Below are positions 18,335 through 36,522 of a DNA stretch of 64,000 nucleotides, in pieces (within the stretch, counting starts at the first letter, position 1; every line of letters begins with the position of its first letter). Position numbers and translations under genes: made by a program. The notes below the pieces were generated by a model. That model ran no database searches. It was not told the origin of the DNA and was given only the letters and a program-made list of their open reading frames with translations. Source of the DNA: Photorhabdus laumondii subsp. laumondii (GTDB taxonomy: Bacteria; Pseudomonadota; Gammaproteobacteria; Enterobacterales; Enterobacteriaceae); assembly GCF_003343245.1 (NCBI RefSeq), contig NZ_CP024901.1:4960001-5024000 (forward strand), read 5' to 3'.

Positions 18335-19903
18335 TTACCATTTCGTTACTAACGACCGTGTTCCATAGTACAAAGTTTCACACCACGAAATGTAATTGTG
18401 ACCACTAGAAATTTCACTGGATTCAACCAGATAACCTTTCTGTAATAACGTCTGTTTCATGCGGCGATTATTATATAAAATACCTTCCAATTCCCCGCGA
18501 TTGGTTTCAAATAATCCTGCCTGTAAATAGAAACGCAGTGGTTTTTTCTCTGCTTTAGCAAACTCACGGATCAACCATTCAGGCGCTTCTCCCTGAGGAG
18601 CCCACCAATATGAACCAGACATACTGAGAACATTGCCAAACAATTCAGGATGATTAAATGCCACCCATGAAGACGCCAATCCACCATAACTGGAACCTGA
18701 AATAATGGTACGCTCTGCCGGTGCTTTAATACCCTGAGCAGCCAGCCACGGTATTAATTCACTCGCCATAAATTCAGCAAAATTAGGATTAGGTGGTAAT
18801 TCCTGACCTCGACGTGCACTATCCAGGCTATCAATAAACACCACATACATAGGTGGGATCTTGCCCTGTTCAATCAGGGAATCGAAAAATCTATCAATAT
18901 AATACTGTTTACGGTAAATCTGCCCATCAAACAGCACCAACATAGCAGGCTGTTTCATCGGAGTAACCGGTTGATAAATCGCAATTTCTCGACTGTTACC
19001 CAAAATCTTACTCTCAAGCTGATGAAGTTTAGTCGCTCCCTGAAAAGGCGATTGCTTAAATTGTGCGATATCACATAGAGTTGGCCTTAGTGCCAGCAAT
19101 GAATCATGGTTAAACACATCCTCTGATACAGCCGGCACAACCTTTTTATTCAATGGATCGGCCTGTGCCGTAATCAAAATCGATCGACGCTGTTCGTCAG
19201 CCGTGCCTTCGACTCGCGGTAAATCCGGTGCCAATCTATATTGCATCAAGGTATCTGACGGAACGATATAGCTGCGAAACCAAACATCAGTACCAACCAA
19301 ATGTGACATCGGATCATGATCACCACTCGGTGCCCCCAGAATAAAGACATTCGCTTTTGCGCCGCGCCACAGGAAAGTGACTCGCTTATTTTTATCATCA
19401 TAATCTTCAATTAACGGCGTACCCTTGCGGGTTATTTCCCGCCAGAAAGCATGGGTGCCTTTTCCTTGTGCGATTTCAGTTTGAAGTTGTTTCAGACGCA
19501 AACTTTCTGGCTGCTGCCGATAATCATTATCCTTGGGAATATAAGATGGAAATGACAATGTAAGCTGCCACGGTTCCCCTGTTTTGCCCTTGGCTGCCAA
19601 CCGATATTTTCCTACCTGAGGAACGGTAAAGCCAATTGATTGACGAGCATCCACCGGGTTATCAGTAAATAGCGTACGAATATGTTGTTGATTACCCTTC
19701 TGTACCACCAATTTCTGCATACCCAATGCCAATCCACGTACATAATGTTCAGGCAGAATATTAAACTCAATACACGCTTCCCTCTGAGAATTAAAATTCC
19801 CAGTTATTGTTTGCTGATCTTGCTGAAATTTTATTTGGTGACACTGAGAAGCAAAGGCATTAAAGGAAGCCATAAGAGCACATATCATTATGTTTACTTT
19901 CAT
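18335..19903 (-). CDS. Exported Fes/IroE-like esterase
   Basis: 522 residues from the ATG at 19903, chosen because it begins a signal peptide (MKVNIMICALMASFNAFAS) after an AGAAGAG ribosome site. The C-terminal alpha/beta-hydrolase domain carries LVLFDGQIY, nucleophile elbow GSSYGG and the final His in SSGHNYISW, as in ferric-enterobactin esterases. A typical Fes N-terminal domain (WRGAKANVFILG, GTDVWFRSY) precedes it. Fes is usually cytoplasmic, so export is notable. No catecholate synthesis genes are in the window. It may hydrolyse imported or foreign siderophore esters (inference). No strong Fur box was found upstream. Confidence 0.8.
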   Translation of the reverse strand: MKVNIMICALMASFNAFASQCHQIKFQQDQQTITGNFNSQREACIEFNILPEHYVRGLALGMQKLVVQKGNQQHIRTLFTDNPVDARQSIGFTVPQVGKYRLAAKGKTGEPWQLTLSFPSYIPKDNDYRQQPESLRLKQLQTEIAQGKGTHAFWREITRKGTPLIEDYDDKNKRVTFLWRGAKANVFILGAPSGDHDPMSHLVGTDVWFRSYIVPSDTLMQYRLAPDLPRVEGTADEQRRSILITAQADPLNKKVVPAVSEDVFNHDSLLALRPTLCDIAQFKQSPFQGATKLHQLESKILGNSREIAIYQPVTPMKQPAMLVLFDGQIYRKQYYIDRFFDSLIEQGKIPPMYVVFIDSLDSARRGQELPPNPNFAEFMASELIPWLAAQGIKAPAERTIISGSSYGGLASSWVAFNHPELFGNVLSMSGSYWWAPQGEAPEWLIREFAKAEKKPLRFYLQAGLFETNRGELEGILYNNRRMKQTLLQKGYLVESSEISSGHNYISWCETLYYGTRSLVTKW

Positions 19904-20257
19904 TTTTTTCTCTTCTTTAATTGTTGATTGTTGGTATTCAATTTTTTTGACACGGCAAATCATGCACTAAATTTTTATTTAATAATAAGAACAATTACTA
20001 TTATTAATAGAATAAATTGTATGCTAACTTTCACTAATTACACGTAAATATGTCAAAACATTTCAGAGAAATGATTCTTTAACAAGATGCGATAGTTTAT
20101 TAGCAGATATATAAATGGCTCGATACGTTGATATAATATTAGTCAAACCATCCCACATATTAAAAAATAAAATAGAAAAACGGGATATAATCTATCCCGC
20201 CACTTCAAATTTGATAAAAATAAAACAAGTTAGTTGCATCTGAATTAAATACAGAAC
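19904..20257. other. Intergenic region between hpaB-like and esterase genes
   Basis: AT-rich; holds the terminator at 20174-20199 and presumably the esterase promoter. No further gene seen. Confidence 0.5.
20174..20199 (-). terminator. Terminator of the HpaB-like gene
   Basis: CGGGATA/TATCCCG stem with a 5-base loop and a T-run on the minus strand. Confidence 0.8.
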
Positions 20258-23039: not shown

Positions 23040-23978
23040 TCACAATGACTCAGATTGGTTCCAAGCTAATGAACATTCTCCCACGCAATCGTCAGACAAA
23101 TTAGATTGCTCAACAAGCCAATCAATAATATTAACAATTTCAGGTCGGAACAAGGTTTCTGGCAATGTCACCGCATAATAAGCAAATCGGGAAGGCCATT
23201 TTTTTTCCAGTGCAACGTTAAGCCGACCGGAACGCAATTCCTCTTCAACGCAAAATTCAGGCACCAATGCTAAACCCTGACCGGTTAAAGCGGCGCGAGC
23301 CAGTAAAAAATCATCTTCGAAACTGGAGCCCTGTCTTGCTTTCGCCCCTTCATTAATTCCGTGTGCTTTTAACCATAAATGCCAATCAGATCTATCTGAA
23401 TCCTGTAACAAAGGGTAATTCAGACAATCTTCAACATGGTTTATCGGTGGTCCTGATCCTAAAAGTTCCGGCGTACCCACGGGAATTAATACCGGTGCAA
23501 TTAACCTGGTAGATATTAAACCTGGGTAATTACCAAGCCCATGCCGTACAGCAATGTCTGTAGAACTTCTTTTTAGGTCTACCAATTCATTGGAAGCTTC
23601 TATATTAACTTCAATATTAGGATATTTCTCATTAAAATTTTTTAGTCTGGGAATCAGCCACGATGCGGCAAATGACGAAGTGGTATTTATAGAGACTTTA
23701 TGTTCGAACTGCATTGCTTTAAGAGACTTAATAGATTTGTCAATATTATCAAACGAAAGTAATAACGTCTCATAAACCCGATCCGCTTTAGCCGTAAGCT
23801 TTATACCTTTAGGCGTTCTTAAAAACAGCGCAAAACCAATTCTATCCTCCAAAATACGAATCTGTTGACTGACCGCCCCAGGAGATACACCCATTGCAGC
23901 CGCCGCAGCTTTAACACTGCCCCGTCGACCAACTTCAGTAAAAGCTCTGAGAGCTAACAGAGGCAAAATAGAACTCAT
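23040..23978 (-). CDS. LysR-family regulator (GcvA-like)
   Basis: 312 residues. N-terminal winged helix (LRAFTEVGRRGSVKAAAAAM, SPGAVSQQIRILED) and a periplasmic-binding-type effector domain with SWLIPRLKNFNEKYP, as in GcvA/DsdC-like regulators. It is divergent from the nine-gene biosynthetic operon beginning at 24379 and is the only regulator beside it, so it is the best candidate activator (inference). An inverted repeat at 24312-24338 is a candidate binding site. Confidence 0.9.
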   Translation of the reverse strand: MSSILPLLALRAFTEVGRRGSVKAAAAAMGVSPGAVSQQIRILEDRIGFALFLRTPKGIKLTAKADRVYETLLLSFDNIDKSIKSLKAMQFEHKVSINTTSSFAASWLIPRLKNFNEKYPNIEVNIEASNELVDLKRSSTDIAVRHGLGNYPGLISTRLIAPVLIPVGTPELLGSGPPINHVEDCLNYPLLQDSDRSDWHLWLKAHGINEGAKARQGSSFEDDFLLARAALTGQGLALVPEFCVEEELRSGRLNVALEKKWPSRFAYYAVTLPETLFRPEIVNIIDWLVEQSNLSDDCVGECSLAWNQSESL

Positions 23979-24010: not shown

Positions 24011-24136
24011 TATACCCTTGGATTTCAAGATGCATCGCGACGGCAAGGGAGCAAATCCCCGGGAGCATAAAGAACGATGTGACCGGGGTGAGTGAGTGCA
24101 GCCAACAAAGAGGCAACTTGAAAAATGACGAGTATA
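24011..24136. repeat. ERIC element
   Basis: 126 bp, opposite orientation to the preceding copies (starts TATACCCTTGGATTTC). It sits in the divergent promoter region between the LysR gene and the biosynthetic operon. Confidence 0.95.
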
Positions 24137-24378: not shown

Positions 24379-25338
24379 ATGTTCAATTATTCAAAGCATA
24401 AGACGTATACCAATTTATTCAAGGAGAACAAAATCAGCATCGGCATGTTTTTACCTCTCAGAGCGTTAAATCAAGAAGCTGATATTAAACCTGAAATCGA
24501 TCTCATTCGTGAAATCGAACAACAAAACTTTTCCGCCATTTGGCTAAGAGATATCCCGCTGTTCGATCCCAATTTTGGCGATATAGGTCAGGGCTTCGAT
24601 CCATTTGTCTATGCCGCCTGGCTAGCCGCATTAACCAGCAAAATCGCCATCGGTTTCGGCAGTGCCATATTTACGCTGCGACACCCCATCGATTTAGCCA
24701 AGAAAGCAACGTCTATTGATCAATTATCAAATGGCCGGTTAATACTGGGTGTCGCCGCAGGAGACAGAATGTCAGAATTCCCTGCCTATAACATACCTTA
24801 TAATGAAAAAGGGATGCGGTTTGTCGAATCAATCAATATGTTCAGAGCGCTGTTGGATAACAACAATCGCACCATTAATAGCCCATTAGGTTATATTGAT
24901 GGGAATTTACGCCTAATACCCAAGGCGGTCAATGATTTTATCCCCCTGATAGTCACTGGGCGTGGGCAACAAGATATTAAATGGATCGCGGAAAATTCGG
25001 ATGGATGGTTTACCTATCCTATTCAAACCCATAATAAAGAGGGCGTCGCCAAACTCGGTAAGAATATTAGCGAATTTAGACAAAATATCCCAGGAAATAT
25101 GTTCAAACCGCACTTAACTAATGAATGGATTGATTTAGTTGAGGATAAATATTATCCCAGAACCCCCACGAATGGCGGATTTATCCTGAAAACCGGCCGC
25201 CTGGGACTGATTGAATTGTTGGAAGAGTGGCAAGAAGTCGGAGTTAATCACGCCGCTCTTGGTATTCAGTACGGCAAAAGGCCCCCTAAAGAGGTTATTC
25301 AAGAAATCGGTGAAGAAGTATTACCTGCTTTTATCTAA
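24379..25338 (+). CDS. Luciferase-like flavin-dependent oxidoreductase
   Basis: 319 residues, TIM-barrel of the bacterial-luciferase-like superfamily: SIGMFLPLRALNQE first strand, IAIGFGSAIFTLRHPIDLAK, SNGRLILGVAAGD and IVTGRGQQDIKWIAENSDGW. It uses reduced flavin (FMNH2) and O2, or F420 in other organisms. First gene of the operon, 52 bp before N-monooxygenase 1. It may oxidise or tailor the N-N product; the reaction cannot be read from sequence. ATG preceded by TGAGGA. Confidence 0.85.
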   Translation: MFNYSKHKTYTNLFKENKISIGMFLPLRALNQEADIKPEIDLIREIEQQNFSAIWLRDIPLFDPNFGDIGQGFDPFVYAAWLAALTSKIAIGFGSAIFTLRHPIDLAKKATSIDQLSNGRLILGVAAGDRMSEFPAYNIPYNEKGMRFVESINMFRALLDNNNRTINSPLGYIDGNLRLIPKAVNDFIPLIVTGRGQQDIKWIAENSDGWFTYPIQTHNKEGVAKLGKNISEFRQNIPGNMFKPHLTNEWIDLVEDKYYPRTPTNGGFILKTGRLGLIELLEEWQEVGVNHAALGIQYGKRPPKEVIQEIGEEVLPAFI

Positions 25339-25390
25339 AAAAATAAAAAAATTATTACTAATAAAAGTTTAAATATTTAAGGAATTTTAC

Positions 25391-26716
25391 ATGAACCAGG
25401 TGGAATACGATATCATAGGCGTAGGATTTGGGCCATCCAATATTTCATTAGCGATAACACTGGAGGAAGAATTACCCCATAAAAAAGTGCTTTTCTTTGA
25501 AAAAGAGCCATCATGCGAATGGCAGGCCGGGCTGTTATTAACAAATTCCGATATCCAAAACCACCCTTTACGGGATCTTGCGACACCAAGAAACCCCAAA
25601 AGCCACTATTCATTCATCAATTACCTGTTTGAAAATAACAGGTTATTTGAACATTTAAACTTGGGATTATATTTTCCATATCGTTATGAATACCGCGACT
25701 ATATCAAATGGGCGGCCAAACATTTCGATAAAGTCGTTCGCTATTCAACATCGATAACATCCGTGAAAATTATTGATCATTATCATGGGGAAAATACACT
25801 CATTGAAGTCAAAACAGATGGAGGAGAAACCTATCAATGTAAAAACCTGATAGTCGGAACAGGAAGAACCCCCTATATTCCTTTATCTCTGCGACAACTT
25901 GACCATAACCATTTAATTCATGGTGCAGAATTTAACAACATTATTAGTCATATTTCCAGTGGGAAAGTAAAAAGTATCGCGGTAGTCGGTGGCAGTCAAT
26001 CTGCTATCGAAATCATGATATTTTTAGCAGACAAATTTCCTCACCTTGAAATTCACGGTGTATCAAGGAAATTTGGCTACCGACTGAAAGATACCTCGCC
26101 ATTTACAGGTGAAGTTTATTTTCCTGAATTTGTAGACACATTTTTCAACAGTAAAGAGGAGCATAAAGCGAGATTAAAAAGAGATTTAAATCTGACAAAC
26201 TACTCTGCCTCCGATGGTGATGTTCTCGATGAACTTTATCGGACTATCTATAGAGATAAATATTTTGGTCAGCATAAAATCAAAATTCATAACTCTGCGG
26301 ATATTGTTGAATCTAGCGTGAAAGATTCCATTGTTTCATTACAAATAGTAAAAAATCATGGGTTAGAAGAAACATATCAAATAGATGTCGATATGGTTGT
26401 CTCCGCCACAGGTTTTAAAGATATTGGCAGGGAGGAATATCAGGAAATCTGTCCACCTCTTCTGGCAGAACTCTATCCATTAATGAGTAAAAATAGCCAT
26501 AACGGGATCATCATCAACAGGGATTATAAGATAGATCTGATTAATGCTACCGATATAGGCATTTATCTAAACGGATTATGTGAATCTTCACACGGCTTAG
26601 GTGATGCCGGCTCATTGAGTTTAGTTTCTATTAGATCCAAACACATTATTGATTCTATCGAAAAAAATATAAAAATTAAAAGATCTATTCATAATAAAAA
26701 TAAAATCGAGGCTTAA
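25391..26716 (+). CDS. Amine N-hydroxylase 1 (lysine/ornithine N-monooxygenase family)
   Basis: 441 residues, class B flavoprotein N-hydroxylating monooxygenase (IucD/PvdA/SidA family). FAD fingerprint GVGFGPSN (10-17), the family block NHPLRDLATPRNPKSHYSF, NADPH fingerprint VVGGSQSA, and ATGFKD near residue 340. The family hydroxylates the side-chain amine of lysine, ornithine or a diamine with NADPH, FAD and O2. In hydrazine pathways the homologue (Spb38 type) makes N6-hydroxylysine for the cupin/MetRS ligase. One base separates it from the aminotransferase gene. Confidence 0.92.
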   Translation: MNQVEYDIIGVGFGPSNISLAITLEEELPHKKVLFFEKEPSCEWQAGLLLTNSDIQNHPLRDLATPRNPKSHYSFINYLFENNRLFEHLNLGLYFPYRYEYRDYIKWAAKHFDKVVRYSTSITSVKIIDHYHGENTLIEVKTDGGETYQCKNLIVGTGRTPYIPLSLRQLDHNHLIHGAEFNNIISHISSGKVKSIAVVGGSQSAIEIMIFLADKFPHLEIHGVSRKFGYRLKDTSPFTGEVYFPEFVDTFFNSKEEHKARLKRDLNLTNYSASDGDVLDELYRTIYRDKYFGQHKIKIHNSADIVESSVKDSIVSLQIVKNHGLEETYQIDVDMVVSATGFKDIGREEYQEICPPLLAELYPLMSKNSHNGIIINRDYKIDLINATDIGIYLNGLCESSHGLGDAGSLSLVSIRSKHIIDSIEKNIKIKRSIHNKNKIEA

Positions 26717-26717
26717 A

Positions 26718-28085
26718 ATGAATAAGGTTAATATTCACACCACAATACCAGGTCCCTTTTCAAAAATCGCATTAGCAAAACAGCTAGAGCAAGAATCAAG
26801 TGCTGTGTCATATCCTAAAAGAATTCAGATTTCGCTAGAAAAAGGCAATGGTTGTTATGTTCAGGATATCGACGGTAATGTATTTATTGATTTTTTATCC
26901 GGTGCCGGCTCTTTACCTCTGGGACACTCTCACCCTGAATTAATTGCCGAAGTAAATGCACAAGTATCAAAACTCTGTTTGGGCTTGGATTTTCCCACGC
27001 CTGCCAAAGAACTTTTTACCGAAGCGCATTTAAGTATGCTACCTGAAAGCCTGCGCAACAAATACAAAATACATTTTTGTGGGCCAACAGGTGCGGATGC
27101 CATTGAAGCAGCCATTAAGCTGGCAAAAATAGCTACCGGAGCTGACGAAATTATTAGTTTCAGGGGTGGCTATCATGGATGTACCCATGCTGCTATTGCC
27201 GTTACTGGCAATAGAAGTATGAAGAAAAATATTCTGGGAAAAATGCCGGGCGTCCATTTTTTCCCCTATGGCTCAGAATCTCAATCTTCGGAAAGTTGGG
27301 TACTCAATTCAGATCATCTTGATGCCGGATTATATCTTGAATCCGCCTTAAATGATGCAAACTCTGGGTTAGGAAATATTGCCGCAATCATTCTGGAGCT
27401 TATTCAAGGTGAAGGTGGCGTTTATTCTGCACAAAAATCATTCGTAGACAGTATTATCCGTGTTTCAAAGACATATTCTATTCCGGTTATTATTGACGAG
27501 ATCCAAACCGGTTGCGGCAGGACCGGAACCTGGTATGCTTTTGAACAGTACGCAATTGAGCCTGATATATTTGTTACCTCAAAAGGTACCAGTGGAATAG
27601 GGTTACCCTCTTCCCTTATGTTCTATAAGAAAGATTTCAATAATTGGACATCAGGTATTCATATTGGCACATTTAGAGGAAATCAGTTGGCATTCGCCTC
27701 AGGTACAAAAGCCATTGAAATAATAAAGCGTGATAATTTATTAGAGAATGTCAAACAGAGATCAATACAAATTAAAAAGCATCTCGCCGCGTTGAAAAAT
27801 AATTTTAACATCATTGGTGAAATTCGTGGTAAAGGCTTGATGCTAGGTGTTGAAATTCTTAACGCCAGCACAGGTAAAGCATGTGAAATAACAGCAAAAC
27901 ATATTCAAAAAATAGCATTAAATAAAGGATTAATAACAGAATTAGGTGGCAGAAACGATACGGTATTACGTATTCTTCCGCCACTCAATGTGAGTAGTGA
28001 TACCATTGAAGAAGCCATAGAGATTCTTCGAAATACATTTCGAGCCTATATGAATGAATTTCAACTTTTAGAGGAAGGTGTATGA
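26718..28085 (+). CDS. Class III aminotransferase (diaminobutyrate-2-oxoglutarate type)
   Basis: 455 residues, PLP fold type I. FLSGAGSLPLGHSHPE, FCGPTGADAIEAAIKLAK, GGYHGCTHAA, the PLP-Asp in IIDEIQTGCGRTG, and the Schiff-base Lys in VTSKGTSGIG. The overall pattern follows 2,4-diaminobutyrate aminotransferases such as RhbA/DatA, which convert aspartate semialdehyde plus glutamate to diaminobutyrate. The SKGTSG variation around the lysine differs from the common SKAIGG. With the decarboxylase at 33381 it could produce 1,3-diaminopropane. Stop overlaps the cupin start (ATGA). Confidence 0.88.
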   Translation: MNKVNIHTTIPGPFSKIALAKQLEQESSAVSYPKRIQISLEKGNGCYVQDIDGNVFIDFLSGAGSLPLGHSHPELIAEVNAQVSKLCLGLDFPTPAKELFTEAHLSMLPESLRNKYKIHFCGPTGADAIEAAIKLAKIATGADEIISFRGGYHGCTHAAIAVTGNRSMKKNILGKMPGVHFFPYGSESQSSESWVLNSDHLDAGLYLESALNDANSGLGNIAAIILELIQGEGGVYSAQKSFVDSIIRVSKTYSIPVIIDEIQTGCGRTGTWYAFEQYAIEPDIFVTSKGTSGIGLPSSLMFYKKDFNNWTSGIHIGTFRGNQLAFASGTKAIEIIKRDNLLENVKQRSIQIKKHLAALKNNFNIIGEIRGKGLMLGVEILNASTGKACEITAKHIQKIALNKGLITELGGRNDTVLRILPPLNVSSDTIEEAIEILRNTFRAYMNEFQLLEEGV

Positions 28086-28450
28086 TGAATATTATTCGTA
28101 AAATGGATTGGGATTCAATGGTTCATGAATATGATCTGGACGGTTCAAGACTTTTACCGTGGGAGGGGCTAAATACGCCATTTGGCGGTGCATGGTGTAT
28201 TGTACGACCAGAAACCAAAAGTTTCCGCCATTCCCACAATGAATATGAATTATTTATTGTTATCCAAGGTAATGCCATTATAAGAATAAATGACGAAGAT
28301 TTCCCTGTCACCAAAGGGGATTTAATTATTATTCCATTAGACTCTGAACATCATGTAATAAATAACAATCAGGAAGATTTCCACTTTTACACAATATGGT
28401 GGGACAAGGAAAGTACATTGAACTTTCTTACCCGATTAGAGCAGGATTAA
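28082..28450 (+). CDS. Small cupin protein, partner of MetRS-like ligase
   Basis: 122 residues, a single cupin domain: metal-binding HSHNEYELFIVIQG (first motif with two His and Glu) and IIPLDSEHHV (second motif His). In characterised hydrazine synthetases (Spb40 type) a cupin is fused to a MetRS-like domain and catalyses N-N rearrangement of the O-aminoacyl hydroxylamine ester. Here it is a separate ORF lying 2 bp before the MetRS-like gene, and 4 bp overlapping the aminotransferase. An ATG at 28085 is an equally possible start. Confidence 0.85.
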   Translation: MMNIIRKMDWDSMVHEYDLDGSRLLPWEGLNTPFGGAWCIVRPETKSFRHSHNEYELFIVIQGNAIIRINDEDFPVTKGDLIIIPLDSEHHVINNNQEDFHFYTIWWDKESTLNFLTRLEQD

Positions 28451-28452
28451 TA

Positions 28453-29946
28453 ATGAATAAATACATTGTCACCATTACGCCACCAACACCAAATGGCGAT
28501 CTGCACGTTGGTCATATAGCAGGACCATTTTTAAGTGCAGATATATTTACTCGCACTCAGCGTTTAAAGGGTAAAAAGTGTTATCTGATATCCTATTCAG
28601 ATGATTATCAATCTTATTTACAGCGCAAAGCAGAAGAAATAGGCATAAGTGCACCAGCACTGGCAAAAGAGAATTCGAAAAAAATACAGGAATCATTGAT
28701 CTTAATTGATATAAAACTGGATCATTGGCTAGAGTCATACGATAACCGCTATTTTGAAGATGCCGTCAAGATGCTCTATCACTCTTGTTTGGACCAAGGC
28801 ATTATTGCACCAAAGGTGAGTTTAGAACCTTATTGCGAAAAATGTGAAAAATGGGGCTATGAAGCCTTTGCCAGAGGTGAATGTAATCATTGTGGTGAAA
28901 GCTCAGATCCAAGCCAATGTGAATCCTGCGCAATGGCACCGGACGCATTTGAAATGAAAAATTTGCGCTGTATTTTGTGCAATGAAAACGTTGTTTATAA
29001 ACATGTTGAGCGCAACTTTCTATTACTGCCGGTAATTGCCGAAAAATTAAAAGAGAAAATTCTTAGTTCTCCTATGAGGCCACAATTAACAGCATGGGTC
29101 GAGGAAGTTTTTGCGCATGGTATAAAAGAGTGGGGCGTGACTCGCCCCAATGAATCAGGGCTGAAACTCTATTCTGATGAAAATCACCGTATTCATACCT
29201 GGTTTATGGGATTAGCCGGATATTTAGCAACACTGAAAGAGCTTTCTGAAAAAAACGCCGATACAGAGAGTCCTTATGACCTTATTTATGATGATAATAC
29301 TTGCATGGTCAATTTTTTAGGTATGGATTGTTCTTACAGCCATATTCTTGCATACCCGGCTCAAATATTATTGAACGACGAATTACACTTTAAACATGCT
29401 TTCTATACTAACTTTTTCTTAAAATTAGATGGAAAAGATTTTTCAACCAGCCGCAATCATGCGATTTGGGTGAAAGATATCGTCAAAAATGCCTGTTCTG
29501 ACAGTGTCAGGTTCTATGTCTCTCTAATATCGCCAGAACACGCTTCTGAAAATTTTGTCGTAGAAGAGTTCTGGACATGGCGGAATCATATCTTTAATTA
29601 TCTGCTGCCCAAAATATCTGATAATTTGGAAAAAATGAATTCTGATAATATTACCAGCCCTATCGTATTATCAGAATCAGAAACAAAAATTATCGAAAGA
29701 TGGCAAACCTATTCCAGATACGATAATTTTTCGATTAAGGAAATTGCCGCTGAATTAATGGAGATGTTAGATTTATTAAACGCAAAATTAAATTACAATA
29801 TTTTAGACAAGAATCTTGCTATTTTATTTGCAATTTTGTCTGAACCGATAATACCCAAAACATCCCAAAAATTAAAAGAATATATTACTCACCATGATAT
29901 AGAGGCTTTCTGTTCATTGTTAAATTTATCAAGACCAGGTGTTTGA
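28453..29946 (+). CDS. Methionyl-tRNA-synthetase-like amino-acid ligase
   Basis: 497 residues from ATG 28453, chosen because the N-terminus then begins with the catalytic strand (NKYIVTITPPTPNGDLHVGH). Class I motifs: HVGH (18-21) and a KMSKS counterpart KDFSTSR (328-334). MetRS-type zinc knuckles (CxxC pairs between about 128 and 190). The C-terminal helical region is short compared with E. coli MetRS (677 aa), and a housekeeping MetRS would not be in such an operon. Its context with N-hydroxylase, cupin and FAD oxidase indicates the hydrazine-synthetase role: activating an amino acid (glycine in known cases) and joining it to an N-hydroxyamine. Substrate unproven. Confidence 0.9.
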   Translation: MNKYIVTITPPTPNGDLHVGHIAGPFLSADIFTRTQRLKGKKCYLISYSDDYQSYLQRKAEEIGISAPALAKENSKKIQESLILIDIKLDHWLESYDNRYFEDAVKMLYHSCLDQGIIAPKVSLEPYCEKCEKWGYEAFARGECNHCGESSDPSQCESCAMAPDAFEMKNLRCILCNENVVYKHVERNFLLLPVIAEKLKEKILSSPMRPQLTAWVEEVFAHGIKEWGVTRPNESGLKLYSDENHRIHTWFMGLAGYLATLKELSEKNADTESPYDLIYDDNTCMVNFLGMDCSYSHILAYPAQILLNDELHFKHAFYTNFFLKLDGKDFSTSRNHAIWVKDIVKNACSDSVRFYVSLISPEHASENFVVEEFWTWRNHIFNYLLPKISDNLEKMNSDNITSPIVLSESETKIIERWQTYSRYDNFSIKEIAAELMEMLDLLNAKLNYNILDKNLAILFAILSEPIIPKTSQKLKEYITHHDIEAFCSLLNLSRPGV

Positions 29947-29948
29947 TT

Positions 29949-31076
29949 ATGCAAACAGATAAAACCATACGCATTACCATTATAGGAGGGGGAATAGTTG
30001 GCGCAACAGTTGCTGCAAACTTGGCATTGAAAGGACTCAATGTCTCCCTCATTGAGCAAGAGACTATTGGCGGTAATGGCGCGACTAAATTCTCCGGTGC
30101 ATTATTCCGCGTACATGATCCTGATCCGGAAATTGCCAGGCTCACACGAAGAAGTGTCGAGCTAATGCAAGAGAGTCAGGTAGGAAAAATATTTAAAAAA
30201 ACGCTCAAACAGACAGGTATTATTTATGCCGCCGAACTCAATCAGAAAAATATTGAATTAGTCAAAACAAGTATCAGGGATTATTGCGACAGTCTCTATC
30301 CTTTAGAGCTCATATCCGCCGAAAAAGCTTTCGAATTAACCAATGGATGTTATTCCAAGCATAACAACCGAATTATCCTTTTTGAGCCCAATGGCGGATT
30401 TGGCTATATTAGACATACAGCCTCAAACTTAGCACAAGTTGTTAGAGATACGGGGAATCTAGTATTAGAGAATACCAAAGTACATGCAATAACAACCGAA
30501 AATGGTAAAGCCATCGTTCAACTTGCTCACTCAACCATTGAAGCAGACTATATTGTTTTAGCCATCGGTGCATGGACAAAAACACTGGCATATAAACTGC
30601 CCGTTAATGCTAAAAGTATCCCTCTGGCAAATATCCGTACCTCCTACAGTACAAATATGCCAATTATAGATACCGAAACTGGCACGCATATCGTGCCACT
30701 TGCTGAATATTTCTATCAAGCCGGATCTAAGATTAGAAATGTGGCCGAGACACCAGAAGATATAGAATATAATGATAATATTATTGAAAACGATATCAGC
30801 GAAAGGCTCCTAAAATCAAAATTTAAACATGAGCCAAGCAATATTCTCTCTATCATTAAAGGATATGATTCATATACACCAGATGAACGCCCTATTCTTG
30901 ACTTTATCGATGAAGAAAAGAGATGTTTTGTTGCGGCTGGATTCTGTGGTATAGGATATAAAATCGCTTTAGCGGTGTCTGAGATTATTACATTAAACCT
31001 ATTGCCAACTGAACTTTCGACTGATTTTCTCAAACAGAAAAATCAGATTTTCTCCTATTCACGATTTACTTATTAA
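29949..31076 (+). CDS. FAD-dependent amine/amino-acid oxidase (DadA/ThiO-like)
   Basis: 375 residues from ATG 29949; a TTG at 29943 overlapping the upstream stop is possible. N-terminal FAD-binding fold ITIIGGGIVGATVAANLALKG and the C-terminal FAD loop FVAAGFCGIGYKIALAVSE, as in glycine/D-amino-acid oxidases. In the Spb39-type pathway this enzyme cleaves the lysine-derived carbon from the carboxymethyl-hydrazine intermediate, releasing hydrazinoacetate. Two bp after the MetRS-like gene. A generic D-amino-acid oxidase role is the alternative but less likely here. Confidence 0.9.
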   Translation: MQTDKTIRITIIGGGIVGATVAANLALKGLNVSLIEQETIGGNGATKFSGALFRVHDPDPEIARLTRRSVELMQESQVGKIFKKTLKQTGIIYAAELNQKNIELVKTSIRDYCDSLYPLELISAEKAFELTNGCYSKHNNRIILFEPNGGFGYIRHTASNLAQVVRDTGNLVLENTKVHAITTENGKAIVQLAHSTIEADYIVLAIGAWTKTLAYKLPVNAKSIPLANIRTSYSTNMPIIDTETGTHIVPLAEYFYQAGSKIRNVAETPEDIEYNDNIIENDISERLLKSKFKHEPSNILSIIKGYDSYTPDERPILDFIDEEKRCFVAAGFCGIGYKIALAVSEIITLNLLPTELSTDFLKQKNQIFSYSRFTY

Positions 31077-31086
31077 GATAAATAAA

Positions 31087-32052
31087 ATGAATAGCAAGCT
31101 TATTTGTGGCATTTCCGCCATTTTAGATCCTGAGAGATCGGTACATGCATTAACTGTCATGCGTGCTATTGAGATATTTAAAGATCTACATAACAATAGC
31201 ACACTGGAATTTATCTTCAGTGAAGATTATGGCTCAATTGAAGGAGGTGCTAAAGCAGCACACTATAATATTGAGAACAATGTCGATATGGTCATAGGTC
31301 ATTTTTCAAGTAACGCGGCAATAGGTGCGGCGGAAGTCTACTCACATCATAACATTCCTGTTCTGTTACCTACTGCAACTGAAACTACCTTGACCATAAG
31401 AAATAGCAATATATTCAGAATTTGCTTCAATAATAAAAATATTGCCCATGCACTTACTGTATTAACAAAAGAAGATGGAGATCACTATTATGAAATAAAA
31501 ACCGATGGCTCAAAATATAGTGATAATCTGGCAGAAGATATTCGCAGAATGTTGAGCAGAGACGATGCTGCGGTAAAACCCAATGACAATACCGATCAAA
31601 TTATTTTTATTGGTACTATCGGTAAAAGTGAAAAATTTCTTCATCATTATTTCTCTGAAAAGAAAAATGGAAAAATTATCCTTACTGATGATGCTGCATG
31701 CAAGCAACTTAATTTGCCAGAAAATGTGGAAAATGGACAAATTACCGGTATCGGATTTGCTCCAGTCGAATTCATTAACCCACTGGAATCCTGTATCCAA
31801 CACTATATCCAACAATACCAGCAATTCCCTAACATCTTCTTTCTTGAAACCTTTGCCGCATTGGAGATTGCCCATCAATTAGCGATTCCCGATAAATTAT
31901 TGCATCGTTTGAATAGAGAGACATTCCAGACAATCCTCGGCCATATTAAGTTCATTAAAGGGGAATGCTCAGCCGCTAAATTATGTTTATGGATGAATGA
32001 GAACTCCATTATGAAGCCACGCTATATTTTACCCATTAATTCGAGAGCTTAA
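31087..32052 (+). CDS. Leu/Ile/Val-receptor-fold protein lacking a signal peptide
   Basis: 321 residues, periplasmic binding protein type I fold (ABC amino-acid receptor / AmiC-like): LICGISAILDPERSV, a FSEDYGSIEGGAKAAHYNIE stretch, VDMVIGHFSSNAAIGAAEVY, IPVLLPTATETTL. The N-terminus starts directly with the first strand, with no signal peptide and no lipobox, so it is predicted to stay in the cytoplasm, and no permease or ATPase genes accompany it. It could sense or sequester a pathway intermediate (inference). Confidence 0.75.
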   Translation: MNSKLICGISAILDPERSVHALTVMRAIEIFKDLHNNSTLEFIFSEDYGSIEGGAKAAHYNIENNVDMVIGHFSSNAAIGAAEVYSHHNIPVLLPTATETTLTIRNSNIFRICFNNKNIAHALTVLTKEDGDHYYEIKTDGSKYSDNLAEDIRRMLSRDDAAVKPNDNTDQIIFIGTIGKSEKFLHHYFSEKKNGKIILTDDAACKQLNLPENVENGQITGIGFAPVEFINPLESCIQHYIQQYQQFPNIFFLETFAALEIAHQLAIPDKLLHRLNRETFQTILGHIKFIKGECSAAKLCLWMNENSIMKPRYILPINSRA

Positions 32053-32054
32053 CA

Positions 32055-33356
32055 ATGAATACAAATAATAAAAAATTTATAGATGTACTCAGCATTGGCT
32101 TTGGGCCCGCAGGTATCGCATTAGCTTGTATATTTGATGAGAAAAAAATCGAACACCAGTATCAATTGCAAAATAATTTCTTAGCACTTGAAAAAGCAGA
32201 TTCTTGTGCCTGGCATCCTAATTTATTATTGCCAAGCACCGATATTAATCATCATGTTTATCGGGATTTAGTGACCCCCAGAAACCCACAAAGTCCTTAT
32301 AGTTTTGCCATGTATTTGAAAGAAAAAAATCGCCTGTTTAAATTTGGCTTATTAGGTCGTCCAGCAAGTCGCTTTGAATGGTCAGATTACATGATCTGGG
32401 TTGGACAAAAACTGGAAAATTATGTGCAATACAAAAAAAATGTGACTCATATATATCCGGTTATCAACCGTGGATTACTGGATGGCTTTAGTGTCTCCGG
32501 GGAAGATTTTGAGTATGTTACCAATACGCTGATATTATCCAGCGGATCAACGCCATTTACGCCAAAAATGTTTGATAACTTGTTAGGTGATCATGTTTTT
32601 CATACCTCTGCATATTTAGAAAAAATAAATAATTTCCAAAATAACATACCCCGAAGATGGATGGTTATTGGTTCTGGTCAAAGTGCCGGCGAAGTGATTG
32701 CTGACTTAATCAATAAAAAAGATGATATTGACATTCTTTCACTGCATCGTTCAATCGGCTTTAAGATCGCGCAACTAGGCCAATTCCCCAATCTGGTATT
32801 CTTACCAGAAAATATCGAATACTTTAAATCTTTAAGCCCGGAGAACAAAAAAGTATTTTTCGAACACGTTAAAAGTACAAACTATTCAGGCATTGATATT
32901 GATGAGAGCCAATCGCTATTTTCAACGATGTATGAAGATGAAGTCATTGGCAAAGAACGTCTTCACATGATGGTCAATTCAGAAATAATTACGATTGACC
33001 ACTCTCACGAAGAATACCAAATTGTTATTAAAGATACATTTACTGGTGAAGAGACTAACCATATTTGTGACGCTATCGTGTTAGGCACGGGATATTATCA
33101 AAACCCGCTACCTGATCTACTGGCAAAATTCGATCAATTTTTGGTAAAAGATTTTGAAGGTGGGCTTACCATCGACAGTGACTATAAAGTGAAATTAAAA
33201 AATTGTGGTACCGCTCATCTTTATGTCAATGGCCTTTCAGAACGAACTCATGGTATTAGCGATGCTCAATCTTTTTCCGCAGTCGCGATAAGAGCAGAAA
33301 GAATATATGAGTCTATTAAAGCGAATACCGGAACGACTGATGATTACGCTATTTAA
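32055..33356 (+). CDS. Amine N-hydroxylase 2 (RhbE/IucD family)
   Basis: 433 residues, second SidA/IucD-type N-monooxygenase. FAD fingerprint GFGPAG (15-20), NHHVYRDLVTPRNPQSPYSF, NADPH fingerprint VIGSGQSAGEV, and LGTGYYQNP near the C-terminus. It is clearly diverged from N-hydroxylase 1, so the two may hydroxylate different amines, one possibly 1,3-diaminopropane as RhbE does. Two bp after the receptor-fold gene. Confidence 0.9.
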   Translation: MNTNNKKFIDVLSIGFGPAGIALACIFDEKKIEHQYQLQNNFLALEKADSCAWHPNLLLPSTDINHHVYRDLVTPRNPQSPYSFAMYLKEKNRLFKFGLLGRPASRFEWSDYMIWVGQKLENYVQYKKNVTHIYPVINRGLLDGFSVSGEDFEYVTNTLILSSGSTPFTPKMFDNLLGDHVFHTSAYLEKINNFQNNIPRRWMVIGSGQSAGEVIADLINKKDDIDILSLHRSIGFKIAQLGQFPNLVFLPENIEYFKSLSPENKKVFFEHVKSTNYSGIDIDESQSLFSTMYEDEVIGKERLHMMVNSEIITIDHSHEEYQIVIKDTFTGEETNHICDAIVLGTGYYQNPLPDLLAKFDQFLVKDFEGGLTIDSDYKVKLKNCGTAHLYVNGLSERTHGISDAQSFSAVAIRAERIYESIKANTGTTDDYAI

Positions 33357-33380
33357 TTTTTACAGGAGGAGATCAATCAA

Positions 33381-34829
33381 ATGATAGACACAAATGACAG
33401 ATGGGATATCAGCAAGGAAATCATCTCTTCACTATTTCCTGAGATACATCAACGTAATGATATTATTGAATTCATAAAGAATTCAGTTAACAATCACATT
33501 GCTGAGTTGCCGACAATGGGAGTTAATCCTTCACTTTCCAAAACTGATATTTCCCACGCTTTATCAAAATACACCTTTGATGGCAATTTTTCGCCAACAG
33601 ATGTTTTAAATGATGTATTACATCTTATGGAAAAAGGAATTGTTCATGTCACCAGCCCGCATTATTTTGGGCTATTTAATCCATCATCAACTTTCTGGGG
33701 TATTATTTCTGACTTCATTACTGCGCTATATAACCCACAATTAGCGGTCTGGAGTCACGCCCCGGCCTGCGTTGAAATAGAGGAAAAATTAATTAAATAT
33801 TTTGGTGGCCTGGCAGGGTTTAATGCTGATAATAGCGGAGGCACATTTACTACCGGTGGTGCAGAAGCAAATTGTACTGCGCTTATTTGCGCCCTGACAA
33901 AACATTTTCCCGATTATGCCCAACAGGGTTTACAGTCAATAAATGGGCAACCTATTTTTTATATCTCTTCAGATAGCCATCTTGCCTGGTTAAAAATAGC
34001 ATTACAATCTGGTTTGGGACACAGTGCTGTCAGATTAATAGCGGTTGATCATACAGGAAGAATGGATATTTCAGGTTTAACCCGAGCTATTGATAATGAT
34101 ATAGCGAACGGCAATAAACCTTTCATGATTGTTGGGACCGCTGGAACGACAAATGCAGGTATTATCGATCCGCTGCCAGAGCTTGCCGCTGTGGCAAATA
34201 AATATCAACTGTTCTTCCATATTGATGCAGCATGGGCAGGCGCAATCCTGTTAAGTGATCAATATTCTCATCATCTCAAGGGTATTGAACAGGCTGATTC
34301 CATTACCATTGACGCCCATAAATGGCTTTCTGCCCCAATGGGTACTGGCATGTTTATATGTGCAGATAAACATATTCTGACAACACCTTTTGCTGTTTCC
34401 ACCAATTATATGCCGGTTAGTGATGATATTAATTCCGATCCCTACATTCACTCCATTCAGTGGTCTCGACGTTTTAACGGATTAAAACTATTTATGCCTC
34501 TGGCAATTCTTGGCCGAACGGGATTTAGCAATATGATTGATTATCAGATCAATCTTGCTGATTATTTAAGATCACAACTGGCGAAAAATGATTGGCAGAT
34601 ATTGAATCCCTCTGCTTTGCCTGTTATTTGTATCCGTGATAATGGAGATTTTGATGTTAATAAAATTTTAGAGAAAGTATTAGAGATTAATCAATGCTGG
34701 ATCTCAATAACCACCTTTGCCAATACAAAAGCCCTGCGCCTTTGTATATCCAGTTTTAGATCCAGCAAATCAGATATTGATCAGCTTGTCGATACTTTAA
34801 ATATGGCGCGAAATTCTGTGCCAATGTAA
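33381..34829 (+). CDS. Group II PLP decarboxylase (diaminobutyrate decarboxylase-like)
   Basis: 482 residues. FTTGGAEANCTALICALT, HIDAAWAGAILLSD (cofactor Asp and Ala) and PLP-lysine in TIDAHKWLSAPMGTG mark the glutamate/aromatic/diaminobutyrate decarboxylase group. Paired with the aminotransferase at 26718 it fits the RhbA-RhbB route to 1,3-diaminopropane. It has the strongest ribosome site of the operon (AGGAGGAG), 24 bp after the preceding stop; last gene before the terminator. Substrate could instead be glutamate or an aromatic amino acid. Confidence 0.87.
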   Translation: MIDTNDRWDISKEIISSLFPEIHQRNDIIEFIKNSVNNHIAELPTMGVNPSLSKTDISHALSKYTFDGNFSPTDVLNDVLHLMEKGIVHVTSPHYFGLFNPSSTFWGIISDFITALYNPQLAVWSHAPACVEIEEKLIKYFGGLAGFNADNSGGTFTTGGAEANCTALICALTKHFPDYAQQGLQSINGQPIFYISSDSHLAWLKIALQSGLGHSAVRLIAVDHTGRMDISGLTRAIDNDIANGNKPFMIVGTAGTTNAGIIDPLPELAAVANKYQLFFHIDAAWAGAILLSDQYSHHLKGIEQADSITIDAHKWLSAPMGTGMFICADKHILTTPFAVSTNYMPVSDDINSDPYIHSIQWSRRFNGLKLFMPLAILGRTGFSNMIDYQINLADYLRSQLAKNDWQILNPSALPVICIRDNGDFDVNKILEKVLEINQCWISITTFANTKALRLCISSFRSSKSDIDQLVDTLNMARNSVPM

Positions 34830-34850: not shown

Positions 34851-34890
34851 ACCACCGACAACTCTTGAATAAAGAGCGGTGGTTTTTTTT
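34851..34890 (+). terminator. Terminator of the biosynthetic operon
   Basis: ACCACCG/CGGTGGT stem with an inner CTCTT/AAGAG stem, followed by eight T's. Confidence 0.93.
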
Positions 34891-34939: not shown

Positions 34940-35066
34940 TATACCCGTTATCCTTCAAGTTGCCTCTTTGTTGGCTGCGCTCACTCACCCCGGTCACATA
35001 GTTATCTATGCTCCCGGGGATTCGCTCCCTTGCCGTCGCGATGCATCTTGAAATCCATTGGGTATA
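34940..35066. repeat. ERIC element
   Basis: Full 127-bp copy between the biosynthetic operon and the AbiE-type pair. The rest of the 34830-35171 gap holds only the terminator. Confidence 0.96.
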
Positions 35067-35171: not shown

Positions 35172-36134
35172 TTAGTTCAGCTCATTCAGAACAGATAAAG
35201 CCGTCTGCCGGAAACAATCGTAAGCTTCTGCCCAAGGTATTCTACTATGTTCAAAGACCATTGGGATCACAAGTTGTTGATAACGTTGCTGATAGATGGG
35301 ATTACTTCCCAACTCTTCCAATCCAGCTCTCAGTTCATTAATCGACGAAATCTGAAACTGAGGATACTGGCGGCCATAGCGCTGAATATCCTGTTCAATA
35401 GTTTGTTGTACAAAACCAGCAAGTTGACGGATATCCACTCCTATTGCATTCACAATGCAGTAGTTATCATGCAGATGACGAACCAGTGACTCGTCATCCT
35501 TTCTATCAATATTACGCATAAACACAGCAGTCCGTCTCAGCATAGCTACCAGCTTTTCAGCTTGAGTGCTGATAATCGTCGTGCAGGGGAACGCTTCAAC
35601 CGCCCGACCTTTTCCTGTTAGTTGCGTGACAAATGAACGAATATCGCGCCGTTCTGCCGCTTGCAGCAAATCAGACTCCATCAACTCCAGTTTGATAAAT
35701 GGCCTGAGGTAGGGAACCTGTACAACACGTTGGGGATAGCGGACCGAAATATCATTGTAGCGATATTCATCCCGTGTGATCTTAGGGTTGCTATCGTCAA
35801 TCCCCAAAAAACCAGATGCTGCAATAGTCGCTGATATCGTCTGAACAATATCCTTTCTGATATTTTTGCGCTGAGATCGGGAGTACTGAACACCCACCAA
35901 AAATTCAGGCTGTGGAACCAGTTTGATATCCACATCTTCCGACATCCGATCAAGTGAAATTCCGGCTTTTGCCAACGCTGTTCCACCAGCAAATACCAGT
36001 TTATGGGTATCAAACGCTAAAGGCTGTAGCAGACGAAGCAGTTCAACAACATAGTAATCTTTTTCCACAATAGAAATAGTACCGATACCTAGTACATCGG
36101 CAACATCTGCAAATAAACCTGATAAATCATCCAT
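35172..36134 (-). CDS. AbiEii/AbiGii-type nucleotidyltransferase toxin
   Basis: 320 residues. Polymerase-beta-like nucleotidyltransferase with KLVFAGGTALAKAGISLDR followed by MSEDVDIKL; the GG(T) and DxD-like (SEDVD) signatures match the AbiEii family. Such toxins transfer nucleotides to tRNA or other targets and act in phage abortive infection. Its start overlaps the upstream antitoxin-like gene by 8 bp. Confidence 0.9.
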   Translation of the reverse strand: MDDLSGLFADVADVLGIGTISIVEKDYYVVELLRLLQPLAFDTHKLVFAGGTALAKAGISLDRMSEDVDIKLVPQPEFLVGVQYSRSQRKNIRKDIVQTISATIAASGFLGIDDSNPKITRDEYRYNDISVRYPQRVVQVPYLRPFIKLELMESDLLQAAERRDIRSFVTQLTGKGRAVEAFPCTTIISTQAEKLVAMLRRTAVFMRNIDRKDDESLVRHLHDNYCIVNAIGVDIRQLAGFVQQTIEQDIQRYGRQYPQFQISSINELRAGLEELGSNPIYQQRYQQLVIPMVFEHSRIPWAEAYDCFRQTALSVLNELN

Positions 36135-36522
36135 TTAACCGGCTATTCCCCACCGATAACACCCGTTTAAAACGGAATGTGGTTTTAATTTGGGTATAAG
36201 CGGGAATCTGTGTTGATTTACCGTCAGTATAGGCAGCAGAAGCTCCATCCAAATGGTATTTCACCTTTAAACGCTCTAACGCTTCAAGAATAACCGCATC
36301 AGAGCCTCCCGGAGAAGCAGGCATTATTTTCCCAGTAACGCTATTTTTCCGAGCCTTGGTGTAAACACCGTATCCCACTTTCAGCAATTGACCTTCTTTG
36401 ACCAAACCGCGCAGTATCCTTCCTACCTGATCGTAACCAGCAATATCTTTAAAGTCGTCACGAATGAACACATAACGTTTTGATCGCTTCAAACGCGCCT
36501 GAATACGCTCTTTAATAATCAT
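36127..36522 (-). CDS. AbiEi-like antitoxin (DUF6088 type)
   Basis: 131 residues, winged-helix N-terminus (RYVFIRDDFKDIAGYDQVGR, then LRGLVKEGQLLKVGYGVYTK) and a C-terminal region ending in NSRLNG. Partner of the nucleotidyltransferase toxin by gene order and overlap. Antitoxins of this class repress their own promoter and block the toxin without forming a tight complex (type IV). Confidence 0.85.
   Translation of the reverse strand: MIIKERIQARLKRSKRYVFIRDDFKDIAGYDQVGRILRGLVKEGQLLKVGYGVYTKARKNSVTGKIMPASPGGSDAVILEALERLKVKYHLDGASAAYTDGKSTQIPAYTQIKTTFRFKRVLSVGNSRLNG

What the first reader, a model, noticed from the sequence alone, without database searches (positions are those of the whole stretch)
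24379..34829. Operon with the full gene set for N-N bond (hydrazine) formation, with added diamine-making genes
Seen: nine closely spaced plus-strand genes (gaps 1-52 bp, one 4-bp overlap) ending in a strong terminator. They include an amine N-monooxygenase, cupin, MetRS-like ligase and FAD oxidase in near-collinear order. Known: in actinomycete pathways (s56-p1 Spb38/Spb40/Spb39; triacsin) these enzymes N-hydroxylate lysine, join glycine through a cupin/MetRS-like protein to form N-N, and release hydrazinoacetate. Inference: this Photorhabdus-like genome has a hydrazine natural-product pathway. Added DABA-aminotransferase and decarboxylase types, a second N-hydroxylase and a luciferase-like oxidase make the product unlikely to be one already known.
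Basis: partly seen in the sequence, partly recalled or inferred. Interest (0 to 1): 0.96.

Follow-up and report, generated by a model that had tools for sequence, protein, structure and literature searches.

The report
Photorhabdus operon for diaminobutyrate-type hydrazines
Nine closely packed genes in the insect-killing bacterium Photorhabdus are predicted to make a still unknown molecule with a rare nitrogen-nitrogen bond, likely built on the amino acid diaminobutyrate; gene sets of this kind were described in print in 2010, and one of the nine proteins already has a crystal structure.

Summary
The operon is real: nine plus-strand genes, 24379-34829, ending in a hairpin terminator. It is not the first sighting: Aravind et al. 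2010 describe this kind of operon and name Photorhabdus luminescens among its hosts, and the cupin is identical to Plu4264, whose structure is solved (4mv2, 4q29). The cupin keeps all four metal ligands and the MetRS-like protein is far from the housekeeping MetRS, so a hydrazine-synthetase pathway is likely.

Both N-hydroxylases carry Arg where PvdA, KtzI, MbtG and the RHS1-locus enzyme carry Lys (5cqf, deposited as a lysine 6-monooxygenase, also has Arg). The first is followed by a diaminobutyrate aminotransferase, as in Xenorhabdus and Vibrio plasmid clusters; the second shares many contigs with the MetRS-like gene. L-2,4-diaminobutyrate is the likely hydroxylated partner.

Two features stand out: Asp/Asn replaces the Lys of the KFSTSR signature, and a signal-less periplasmic-binding-fold protein recurs in 6 of 12 plasmid clusters analysed. 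Product, second amino acid, and the roles of decarboxylase, luciferase-like enzyme and binding protein are unproven. Verdict: new variant of a known kind.

The parts
24379..25338 (+). luciferase-like (LLM) flavin oxidoreductase, TIGR03571 family
   Evidence: NCBIfam TIGR03571 392 bits, cut-off 303.9
25391..26716 (+). NMO-A, flavin amine N-monooxygenase; clade with Xenorhabdus pXT29 and Vibrio halioticoli plasmid enzymes
   Evidence: PF13434 289 bits; 43-46% to xen/vib; 3-row clade 100/99
26718..28085 (+). L-2,4-diaminobutyrate aminotransferase family (class III)
   Evidence: TIGR00709 402.1 bits, cut-off 401.6; below the stricter equivalogs (EctB 348 vs 552); 34% to xen/vib aminotransferases
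28082..28450 (+). cupin, identical to Plu4264 (PDB 4mv2, 4q29); ligands H50, H52, E56, H90
   Evidence: (identical over 122 residues)
28453..29946 (+). MetRS-like ligase (ORF listed from 28396; likely start 28453); HVGH and DFSTSR signatures
29943..31076 (+). DAO-type FAD amine oxidase (start TTG 29943 or ATG 29949)
   Evidence: PF01266 130 bits; nearest PDB sarcosine/glycine oxidases; 23-26% to oxidases of xen and vib clusters
31087..32052 (+). periplasmic-binding-fold protein without a clear signal peptide, no ABC permease or ATPase in the operon
32055..33356 (+). NMO-B, second flavin amine N-monooxygenase, related to 5cqf (deposited as L-lysine 6-monooxygenase)
   Evidence: 441 bits to 5cqf; co-occurs with MetRS-like homologs on 28 shared contig lengths
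33381..34829 (+). PLP-dependent decarboxylase with DAHKW motif
   Evidence: PF00282 229 bits; far below the RhbB cut-off (168.7 vs 900)
34851..34890 (+). intrinsic terminator: 12-pair hairpin and U run
23040..23978 (-). divergent LysR-type regulator, present beside the operon in the 3 operon-bearing genomes examined; candidate regulator

Best explanation
This nine-gene Photorhabdus operon, which encodes the cupin Plu4264, a methionyl-tRNA-synthetase-like protein, two proteins of the flavin N-hydroxylase family, a diaminobutyrate-aminotransferase-family protein and a protein of the FAD amine-oxidase family, is predicted to form a nitrogen-nitrogen bond, most likely on L-2,4-diaminobutyrate (DABA) that would first be N-hydroxylated. 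Proposed steps, all inferred from family chemistry: (1) the aminotransferase makes DABA from aspartate semialdehyde; (2) NMO-A (and perhaps NMO-B on DABA, ornithine or a later intermediate) makes the omega-hydroxylamine; (3) the MetRS-like protein adenylates a small amino acid and transfers it to the hydroxylamine oxygen; (4) the cupin rearranges that ester to the hydrazine; (5) the FAD oxidase cleaves one C-N bond, giving 2-amino-4-hydrazinobutyrate if it cuts like Apy10, or an alpha-hydrazino acid plus aspartate semialdehyde (which the aminotransferase could recycle) if it cuts like Spb39; (6) the decarboxylase and the luciferase-like enzyme tailor the product, for example to an aminopropyl hydrazine and an N-oxidised form. 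The binding-fold protein is proposed to hold a reactive amino-acid-like intermediate in the cytoplasm. Shown here: gene content, order, motifs, conservation, phylogeny. Not shown: any reaction.
For: Cupin H50/H52/E56/H90 sit at the same numbers as PyrN's four ligands and align with RHS1 D63/H65/E69/H103. The MetRS-like protein is far from the genome's housekeeping MetRS. NMO - cupin - MetRS - FAD oxidase order recurs in Deinococcus, Pantoea and, with the aminotransferase inserted after the NMO, in the window. An NMO-A type enzyme directly followed by a DABA-family aminotransferase recurs in Xenorhabdus pXT29 and V. halioticoli. Both NMOs keep a basic residue in the xDLVT/xDLAT motif, where 6xbb (named GorA, a diamine enzyme, from recall) has MSDLVT. 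DABA as N-hydroxylated partner and FAD-oxidase cleavage have precedent in Apy11/Apy9/Apy10 (PMC11705231, section read). No NIS synthetase, NRPS or N-acyltransferase domain among the nine proteins.
Against: The MetRS-like signature is DFSTSR; the first residue is Lys in 10 of 12 plasmid homologs and Asp in the other two, and PyrN K458A has negligible activity, if that Lys is K458. None of the papers I read names an assayed member that I could place in this D/N branch. 5cqf, close to NMO-B, is deposited as L-lysine 6-monooxygenase although it has the RDL motif. The TNY motif that both NMOs share with PvdA, KtzI and MbtG is missing in the lysine hydroxylase of the RHS1 locus, so it does not tell amino-acid from diamine enzymes. 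NMO-A and its two plasmid relatives lost the Asn that aligns with PvdA N254 (residue number recalled). The window's aminotransferase passes its subfamily cut-off only barely (402.1 vs 401.6) and is only 34% identical to those of Xenorhabdus and Vibrio. Two N-hydroxylases are one more than the scheme needs. The decarboxylase could act first, giving 1,3-diaminopropane.
Confidence: 0.6

Rival explanations
1. Lysine/glycine pathway to hydrazinoacetate as in s56-p1, triacsin and azaserine.
For: Same enzyme classes; DAO-type oxidase present, with weak similarity to the oxidase of the Sinorhizobium cluster that I judge azaserine-like from recall (24%, E 5e-8). NMO-B's close PDB relative 5cqf is deposited as L-lysine 6-monooxygenase.
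Against: Ten of 12 plasmid clusters analysed, among them the lysine-using RHS1 locus, have KDL N-hydroxylases and KFSTSR ligases; the window has RDL and DFSTSR. A DABA aminotransferase has no role in it.
Confidence: 0.12
2. Diamine route: the decarboxylase makes 1,3-diaminopropane first, an NMO hydroxylates it, and the synthetase couples that to an amino acid.
For: Aminotransferase plus decarboxylase types resemble the rhizobactin RhbA/RhbB pair (for the RhbB model; roles recalled). The review lists N3-OH-DAPN and N4-OH-putrescine as accepted hydroxylamines (I read DAPN as 1,3-diaminopropane, undefined in the text).
Against: Both NMOs keep a basic residue where 6xbb has Ser; this is one motif only. 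The decarboxylase is far below the RhbB cut-off (168.7 vs 900).
Confidence: 0.2
3. Two separate hydroxylamines: NMO-A hydroxylates DABA and NMO-B ornithine or lysine, so the operon makes a mixed product or two products. This overlaps with the best explanation.
For: NMO-B homologs share contigs with MetRS-like homologs (28 shared contig lengths, 11 of them 30 kb or less), while NMO-A relatives sit next to a DABA aminotransferase. Por9 of P. orientalis is given as specific for the ornithine compound and Por11 uses N-OH-DABA or N-OH-Orn with glycine.
Against: Whether Por9 belongs to the NMO-B group was not tested.
Confidence: 0.25
4. Hydroxamate siderophore operon of rhizobactin/schizokinen type.
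For: RhbA-, RhbB- and RhbE-like enzyme classes (roles recalled). An enterochelin-esterase-like gene (18335-19963, 196 bits, cut-off 222) lies about 4.4 kb upstream and is also upstream in L003 and L004.
Against: No NIS synthetase, acyltransferase or NRPS domain among the nine proteins or the flanking ones scanned; the cupin plus MetRS-like pair has no role.
Confidence: 0.03
5. Peptide-type metabolite made by a Met-Lys ligase, as proposed in 2010.
For: Aravind et al. 2010 (PMC2922099; abstract, find passages and part 1 of 2 of section 7 read).
Against: Later in vitro work on PyrN and RHS1 showed ester transfer and N-N formation (PMC8664883).
Confidence: 0.05

Closest known systems
RHS1 locus of Rhodococcus (cupin WP_007299751, PDB 5UQP; seen here in strain DK176 as L008)
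   Same: standalone cupin and MetRS-like protein, N-hydroxylase, and a luciferase-like enzyme in one cluster
   Different: KDL/KFSTSR motifs, saccharopine dehydrogenase and lysine 2,3-aminomutase; the luciferase-like protein is of another family and has no BLAST match to the window's; no DAO-type oxidase, DABA aminotransferase or binding protein annotated in the stretch opened
Apy9/Apy10/Apy11 of actinopyridazinone (from review PMC11705231)
   Same: DABA as hydroxylated partner (proposed here), FAD oxidase step
   Different: reference sequences not in hand; the product needs PKS/NRPS genes (recalled), absent here
Xenorhabdus sp. TCT-1 plasmid pXT29 and Vibrio halioticoli pIAM14596 clusters (L007, L010)
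   Same: DFSTSR ligase, cupin, FAD oxidase, binding protein, NMO-A type enzyme next to DABA aminotransferase
   Different: one N-hydroxylase in the stretch read; adenylation protein, GNAT, alpha/beta hydrolase and rhodanese-like proteins; no protein with a BLAST match to the window's decarboxylase or luciferase-like enzyme; cupins lack the second His ligand
Deinococcus ficus, Pantoea and Klebsiella plasmid clusters (L011-L015)
   Same: NMO-cupin-MetRS-FAD oxidase order (in Klebsiella the oxidase position lies across the record start and was not seen) and a binding protein
   Different: KDL/KFSTSR motifs, ATP-grasp and MFS genes; no DABA aminotransferase annotated in the stretches opened
Plu4264 (PDB 4mv2, 4q29)
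   Same: identical sequence to the window's cupin
   Different: nothing; Weerth et al. 2015 seen only as a reference-list entry, paper not held

Membership tests
cupin/MetRS-like hydrazine synthetase | MetRS paralog distinct from the housekeeping MetRS | tested here: met
   21% identity to the other genomic copy; in the 39-row tree the housekeeping protein is on a branch of 6.89, the window protein's nearest row is at path 0.8 (root drawn at midpoint only)
cupin/MetRS-like hydrazine synthetase | fused or neighbouring cupin with four metal ligands and the invariant Glu | tested here: met
   H50, H52, E56, H90
cupin/MetRS-like hydrazine synthetase | Lys of the ATP signature (PyrN K458) | tested here: inconclusive
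   The window has D348 where 10 of 12 plasmid homologs have K. That this column is K458 is inferred from similar numbering; the PyrN sequence was not in hand
cupin/MetRS-like hydrazine synthetase | co-encoded flavin N-hydroxylase | tested here: met
   two, by Pfam PF13434
cupin/MetRS-like hydrazine synthetase | N-N bond formation | not testable with these tools
   needs enzyme assay
hydrazinoacetate pathway (lysine + glycine) | lysine-type N-hydroxylase | tested here: inconclusive
   RDL motif, and clades apart from the RHS1-locus lysine enzyme; but 5cqf, near NMO-B, is deposited as L-lysine 6-monooxygenase. Activity untested
Apy-type DABA hydrazine pathway | DABA supply gene beside the N-hydroxylase | tested here: met
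   25391-26716 directly followed by 26718-28085; a like pair in L007 and L010. Whether Apy itself has this pair was not seen
Apy-type DABA hydrazine pathway | homology to Apy9/10/11 | not tested
   no Apy sequence in hand
rhizobactin/schizokinen siderophore | NIS synthetase (IucA/IucC) | tested here: not met
   no such domain among the operon and flanking proteins scanned; other parts of the genome not searched for it
ABC-transporter substrate-binding protein | secretion signal and neighbouring permease/ATPase | tested here: not met
   no strongly hydrophobic N-terminus in 7 of 7 proteins by a crude hydropathy check; no ABC permease or ATPase domain in the operon

The most novel reading that the evidence does not exclude
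A separate branch of hydrazine synthetases (Asp/Asn in place of the KFSTSR lysine, Arg-type N-hydroxylases) works on diaminobutyrate, and a cytoplasmic protein of the periplasmic-binding fold is an unrecognised core component that carries or channels the reactive hydrazine.
Probability: 0.27. Interest if true: 0.72.

Novelty: new variant of a known kind. Interest (0 to 1): 0.52.

Why it matters
N-N bonds are rare in biology and the enzymes are sought as biocatalysts. This operon has an already crystallised cupin, sits in a genus that can be worked on genetically, and belongs to a ligase branch for which I found no assay in the papers read. It would test whether DABA-based hydrazines are common outside actinomycetes, what the binding-fold protein does, and what Photorhabdus makes with it. 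It also suggests that an NCBIfam equivalog (NF008859) labels a likely non-translational enzyme as methionine--tRNA ligase.

Tried and rejected
Looked for the same operon outside Photorhabdus in whole genomes: 1 of 369 class genomes (E <= 1e-60) and 1 of 394 order genomes (E <= 1e-40) matched, in both cases only the window's own genome, so no chromosomal neighbourhood from Serratia or Pseudomonas was seen. Searches with NMO-B (3 of 143 genomes, own included) and NMO-A (7 of 369, own included) were meant to reach a Pseudomonas genome. Three of the hit loci (L027-L029) were printed and by eye sit beside siderophore-type genes; none served. Contig-length matching was used instead. It shows co-occurrence on a contig, not order, and rests on capped lists: 120 of 366 MetRS-like hits, 120 of 184 NMO-B hits and all 17 binding-protein hits. 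Only 5 MetRS-like and 3 NMO-B contigs are shared with the binding-protein list.

The ~44-bp repeat on both sides of the operon looked like element ends, but the window holds 10 copies, so it was dropped. The long MetRS-like ORF start (28396) was rejected in favour of 28453. A ligand for the binding protein could not be named: the best structural matches, LivK/LivJ and glutamate-receptor domains, lie within a few Z units and a shared fold shows no function. Paper searches for a described product or earlier functional work listed none for this operon beyond Aravind 2010 and papers that name Plu4264 or its entries (one opened); only open-licence papers are searched. On checking against the calls I lowered the best explanation from 0.62 to 0.60 and raised the hydrazinoacetate rival from 0.10 to 0.12, because 5cqf is deposited as a lysine enzyme and the TNY motif proved not to be diagnostic.


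Full report
Observation. The nine ORFs are present at the stated coordinates with near-zero spacing and a hairpin terminator after the last (z -3.07). Photorhabdus bodei and Photorhabdus sp. CRCIA-P01 carry the same nine genes in the same order (92-99% identity). Among Photorhabdus genomes held, 3 of 12 have the MetRS-like gene, the window's own included. Its cupin is identical over all 122 residues to Plu4264 of P. luminescens subsp. laumondii TTO1, so TTO1 or a close relative is likely.

Identity of the parts. Pfam and NCBIfam give: LLM oxidoreductase (TIGR03571, 392 bits); N-monooxygenase A; class-III aminotransferase of the DABA family (402.1 bits against a cut-off of 401.6); cupin; MetRS-like; DAO-type FAD oxidase; Peripla_BP_6-like; N-monooxygenase B; PLP decarboxylase. 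The cofactor motifs looked for are present. The second genomic MetRS is only 21% identical and sits on a very long branch of the tree (6.89, drawn with a midpoint root). In the alignment the stretches of the housekeeping protein that I recall as anticodon-recognition elements (NLASRN, APW) have no counterpart in the MetRS-like proteins.

Cupin. In PyrN the metal ligands are H50, H52, E56, H90, with E56 essential; in RHS1 they are D63, H65, E69, H103 (PMC8664883: part 1 of section 5, section 12 and find passages read). The window's cupin has H50, H52, E56, H90. RHS1 itself (WP_007299751) lies in the plasmid locus fetched as L008, so the alignment includes a validated member. The Xenorhabdus and Vibrio relatives lack the second His.

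A separate branch. Thirteen plasmid records were opened (14 calls) and twelve analysed (L020 was not). In 10 of 12 the MetRS-like protein reads KFSTSR and the N-hydroxylase KDL; in 2 of 12 (Xenorhabdus pXT29, Vibrio halioticoli) and in the window they read DFSTSR and RDL. The 13 closest listed homologs (52% identity or more, Photorhabdus copies included) all read DFSTSR. Of 17 homologs aligned, 8 have D, 8 N, 1 T and none K; one more (P0118) has C. All 24 NMO-B homologs sampled have RDL. The branch also stands out in NCBIfam model NF008859: 826, 672 and 608 bits for window, Xenorhabdus and Vibrio (cut-off 553) against 206-213 for Rhodococcus, Deinococcus and Streptomyces. That model calls its members methionine--tRNA ligase, which is probably misleading. 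PyrN K458A has negligible activity. If K458 is the first Lys of KFSTSR, as similar numbering (446-461 in four fused homologs) suggests, this branch must activate its amino acid without it. I count this as the strongest point against simple transfer of the known mechanism.

Which amine is hydroxylated. NMO-A groups with the Xenorhabdus and Vibrio enzymes (100/99), and all three genes are directly followed by an aminotransferase of the DABA kind. The Xenorhabdus one scores 657 bits to EctB (cut-off 552), the Vibrio one 519 (below that cut-off, above the PRK09264 one), the window's only 348, and the window's is 34% identical to both, so the pairing is alike but the aminotransferases are not close. 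NMO-B belongs to another group that includes 5cqf (441 bits; its source, P. syringae, is recalled). So NMO-B homologs often accompany this ligase branch, and NMO-A with the aminotransferase resembles the Xenorhabdus/Vibrio arrangement; the window has both. Both NMOs have Arg where PvdA, KtzI, MbtG and the RHS1-locus enzyme have Lys; that this Lys (PvdA K69) binds the carboxylate is recalled. 6xbb, which I recall as the diamine enzyme GorA, has Ser there. Against a simple reading: 5cqf has the Arg too and is deposited as L-lysine 6-monooxygenase, and the TNY motif of both NMOs is missing in the RHS1-locus lysine enzyme, so it tells nothing. The Asn recalled as PvdA N254 is kept in NMO-B but is G, D and E in NMO-A, Xenorhabdus and Vibrio. 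Precedent: Apy11 hydroxylates DABA, Apy9 joins it to alanine, Apy10 cleaves the C-alpha bond; Por11 of P. orientalis joins N-OH-DABA or N-OH-Orn to glycine (PMC11705231, section 15 and find passages read).

Site. In 4 of 11 Photorhabdus loci the HpaB-like gene lies next to the DUF3156 gene with no room for LysR or operon; 3 of 11 (own genome included) have AbiE-type genes there, 2 of 11 the end of the operon, and 2 of 11 nothing that matched. The operon with its LysR neighbour therefore looks like a variable insert. Its G+C is 0.377 against 0.411 for the window.

Prior art. Aravind, de Souza and Iyer 2010 (abstract, find passages and part 1 of section 7 read) describe MetRS-paralog/cupin/N-monooxygenase operons, name Photorhabdus luminescens among the hosts, and mention DABA transaminase, flavin monooxygenases and binding proteins; their figure with the operons was not seen. 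They proposed a peptide. Zhao 2021 and the 2024 review give the N-N chemistry. The Plu4264 structure paper is known to me only from a reference list. Searches listed no report of a product for this operon; most subscription papers are not in that library.

Verdict. Likely hydrazine synthetase operon (about 0.85), DABA as the hydroxylated partner (about 0.6), hydrazinoacetate as product unlikely (about 0.12). New variant of a known kind.

Noticed in passing
window 28453-29946: NCBIfam NF008859 ('methionine--tRNA ligase', equivalog) scores this protein far above cut-off, so automatic annotation names a likely non-translational enzyme a MetRS.
   Followed up: yes
window 24079-24122, 34954-34997 and 8 more: A ~44-bp repeat occurs 10 times in the 64 kb, on both sides of the operon among other places.
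   Followed up: partly
window 35172-36522: AbiEii-type nucleotidyltransferase with a DUF6088 partner (likely AbiE toxin-antitoxin pair) beside the operon; matching genes lie at the same site in two Photorhabdus genomes without the MetRS-like gene.
   Followed up: partly
protein P0124: Photorhabdus antumapuensis has a 430-residue protein carrying both binding-fold and N-monooxygenase domains, apparently a decayed or fused remnant of the two neighbouring genes.
   Followed up: no
window 42909-47183 (-): PAAR/Rhs-repeat protein ending in a WHH nuclease-type domain.
   Followed up: no
window 4044-5738 (+): Protein joining hemopexin repeats to a PA-IIL fucose-binding lectin domain.
   Followed up: no
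L007 19033-19689: In Xenorhabdus pXT29 the cupin carries an N-terminal stretch that looks like a carrier-protein domain (GIDSL motif seen), recalling the C-terminal carrier domain of azaserine-type synthetases.
   Followed up: no
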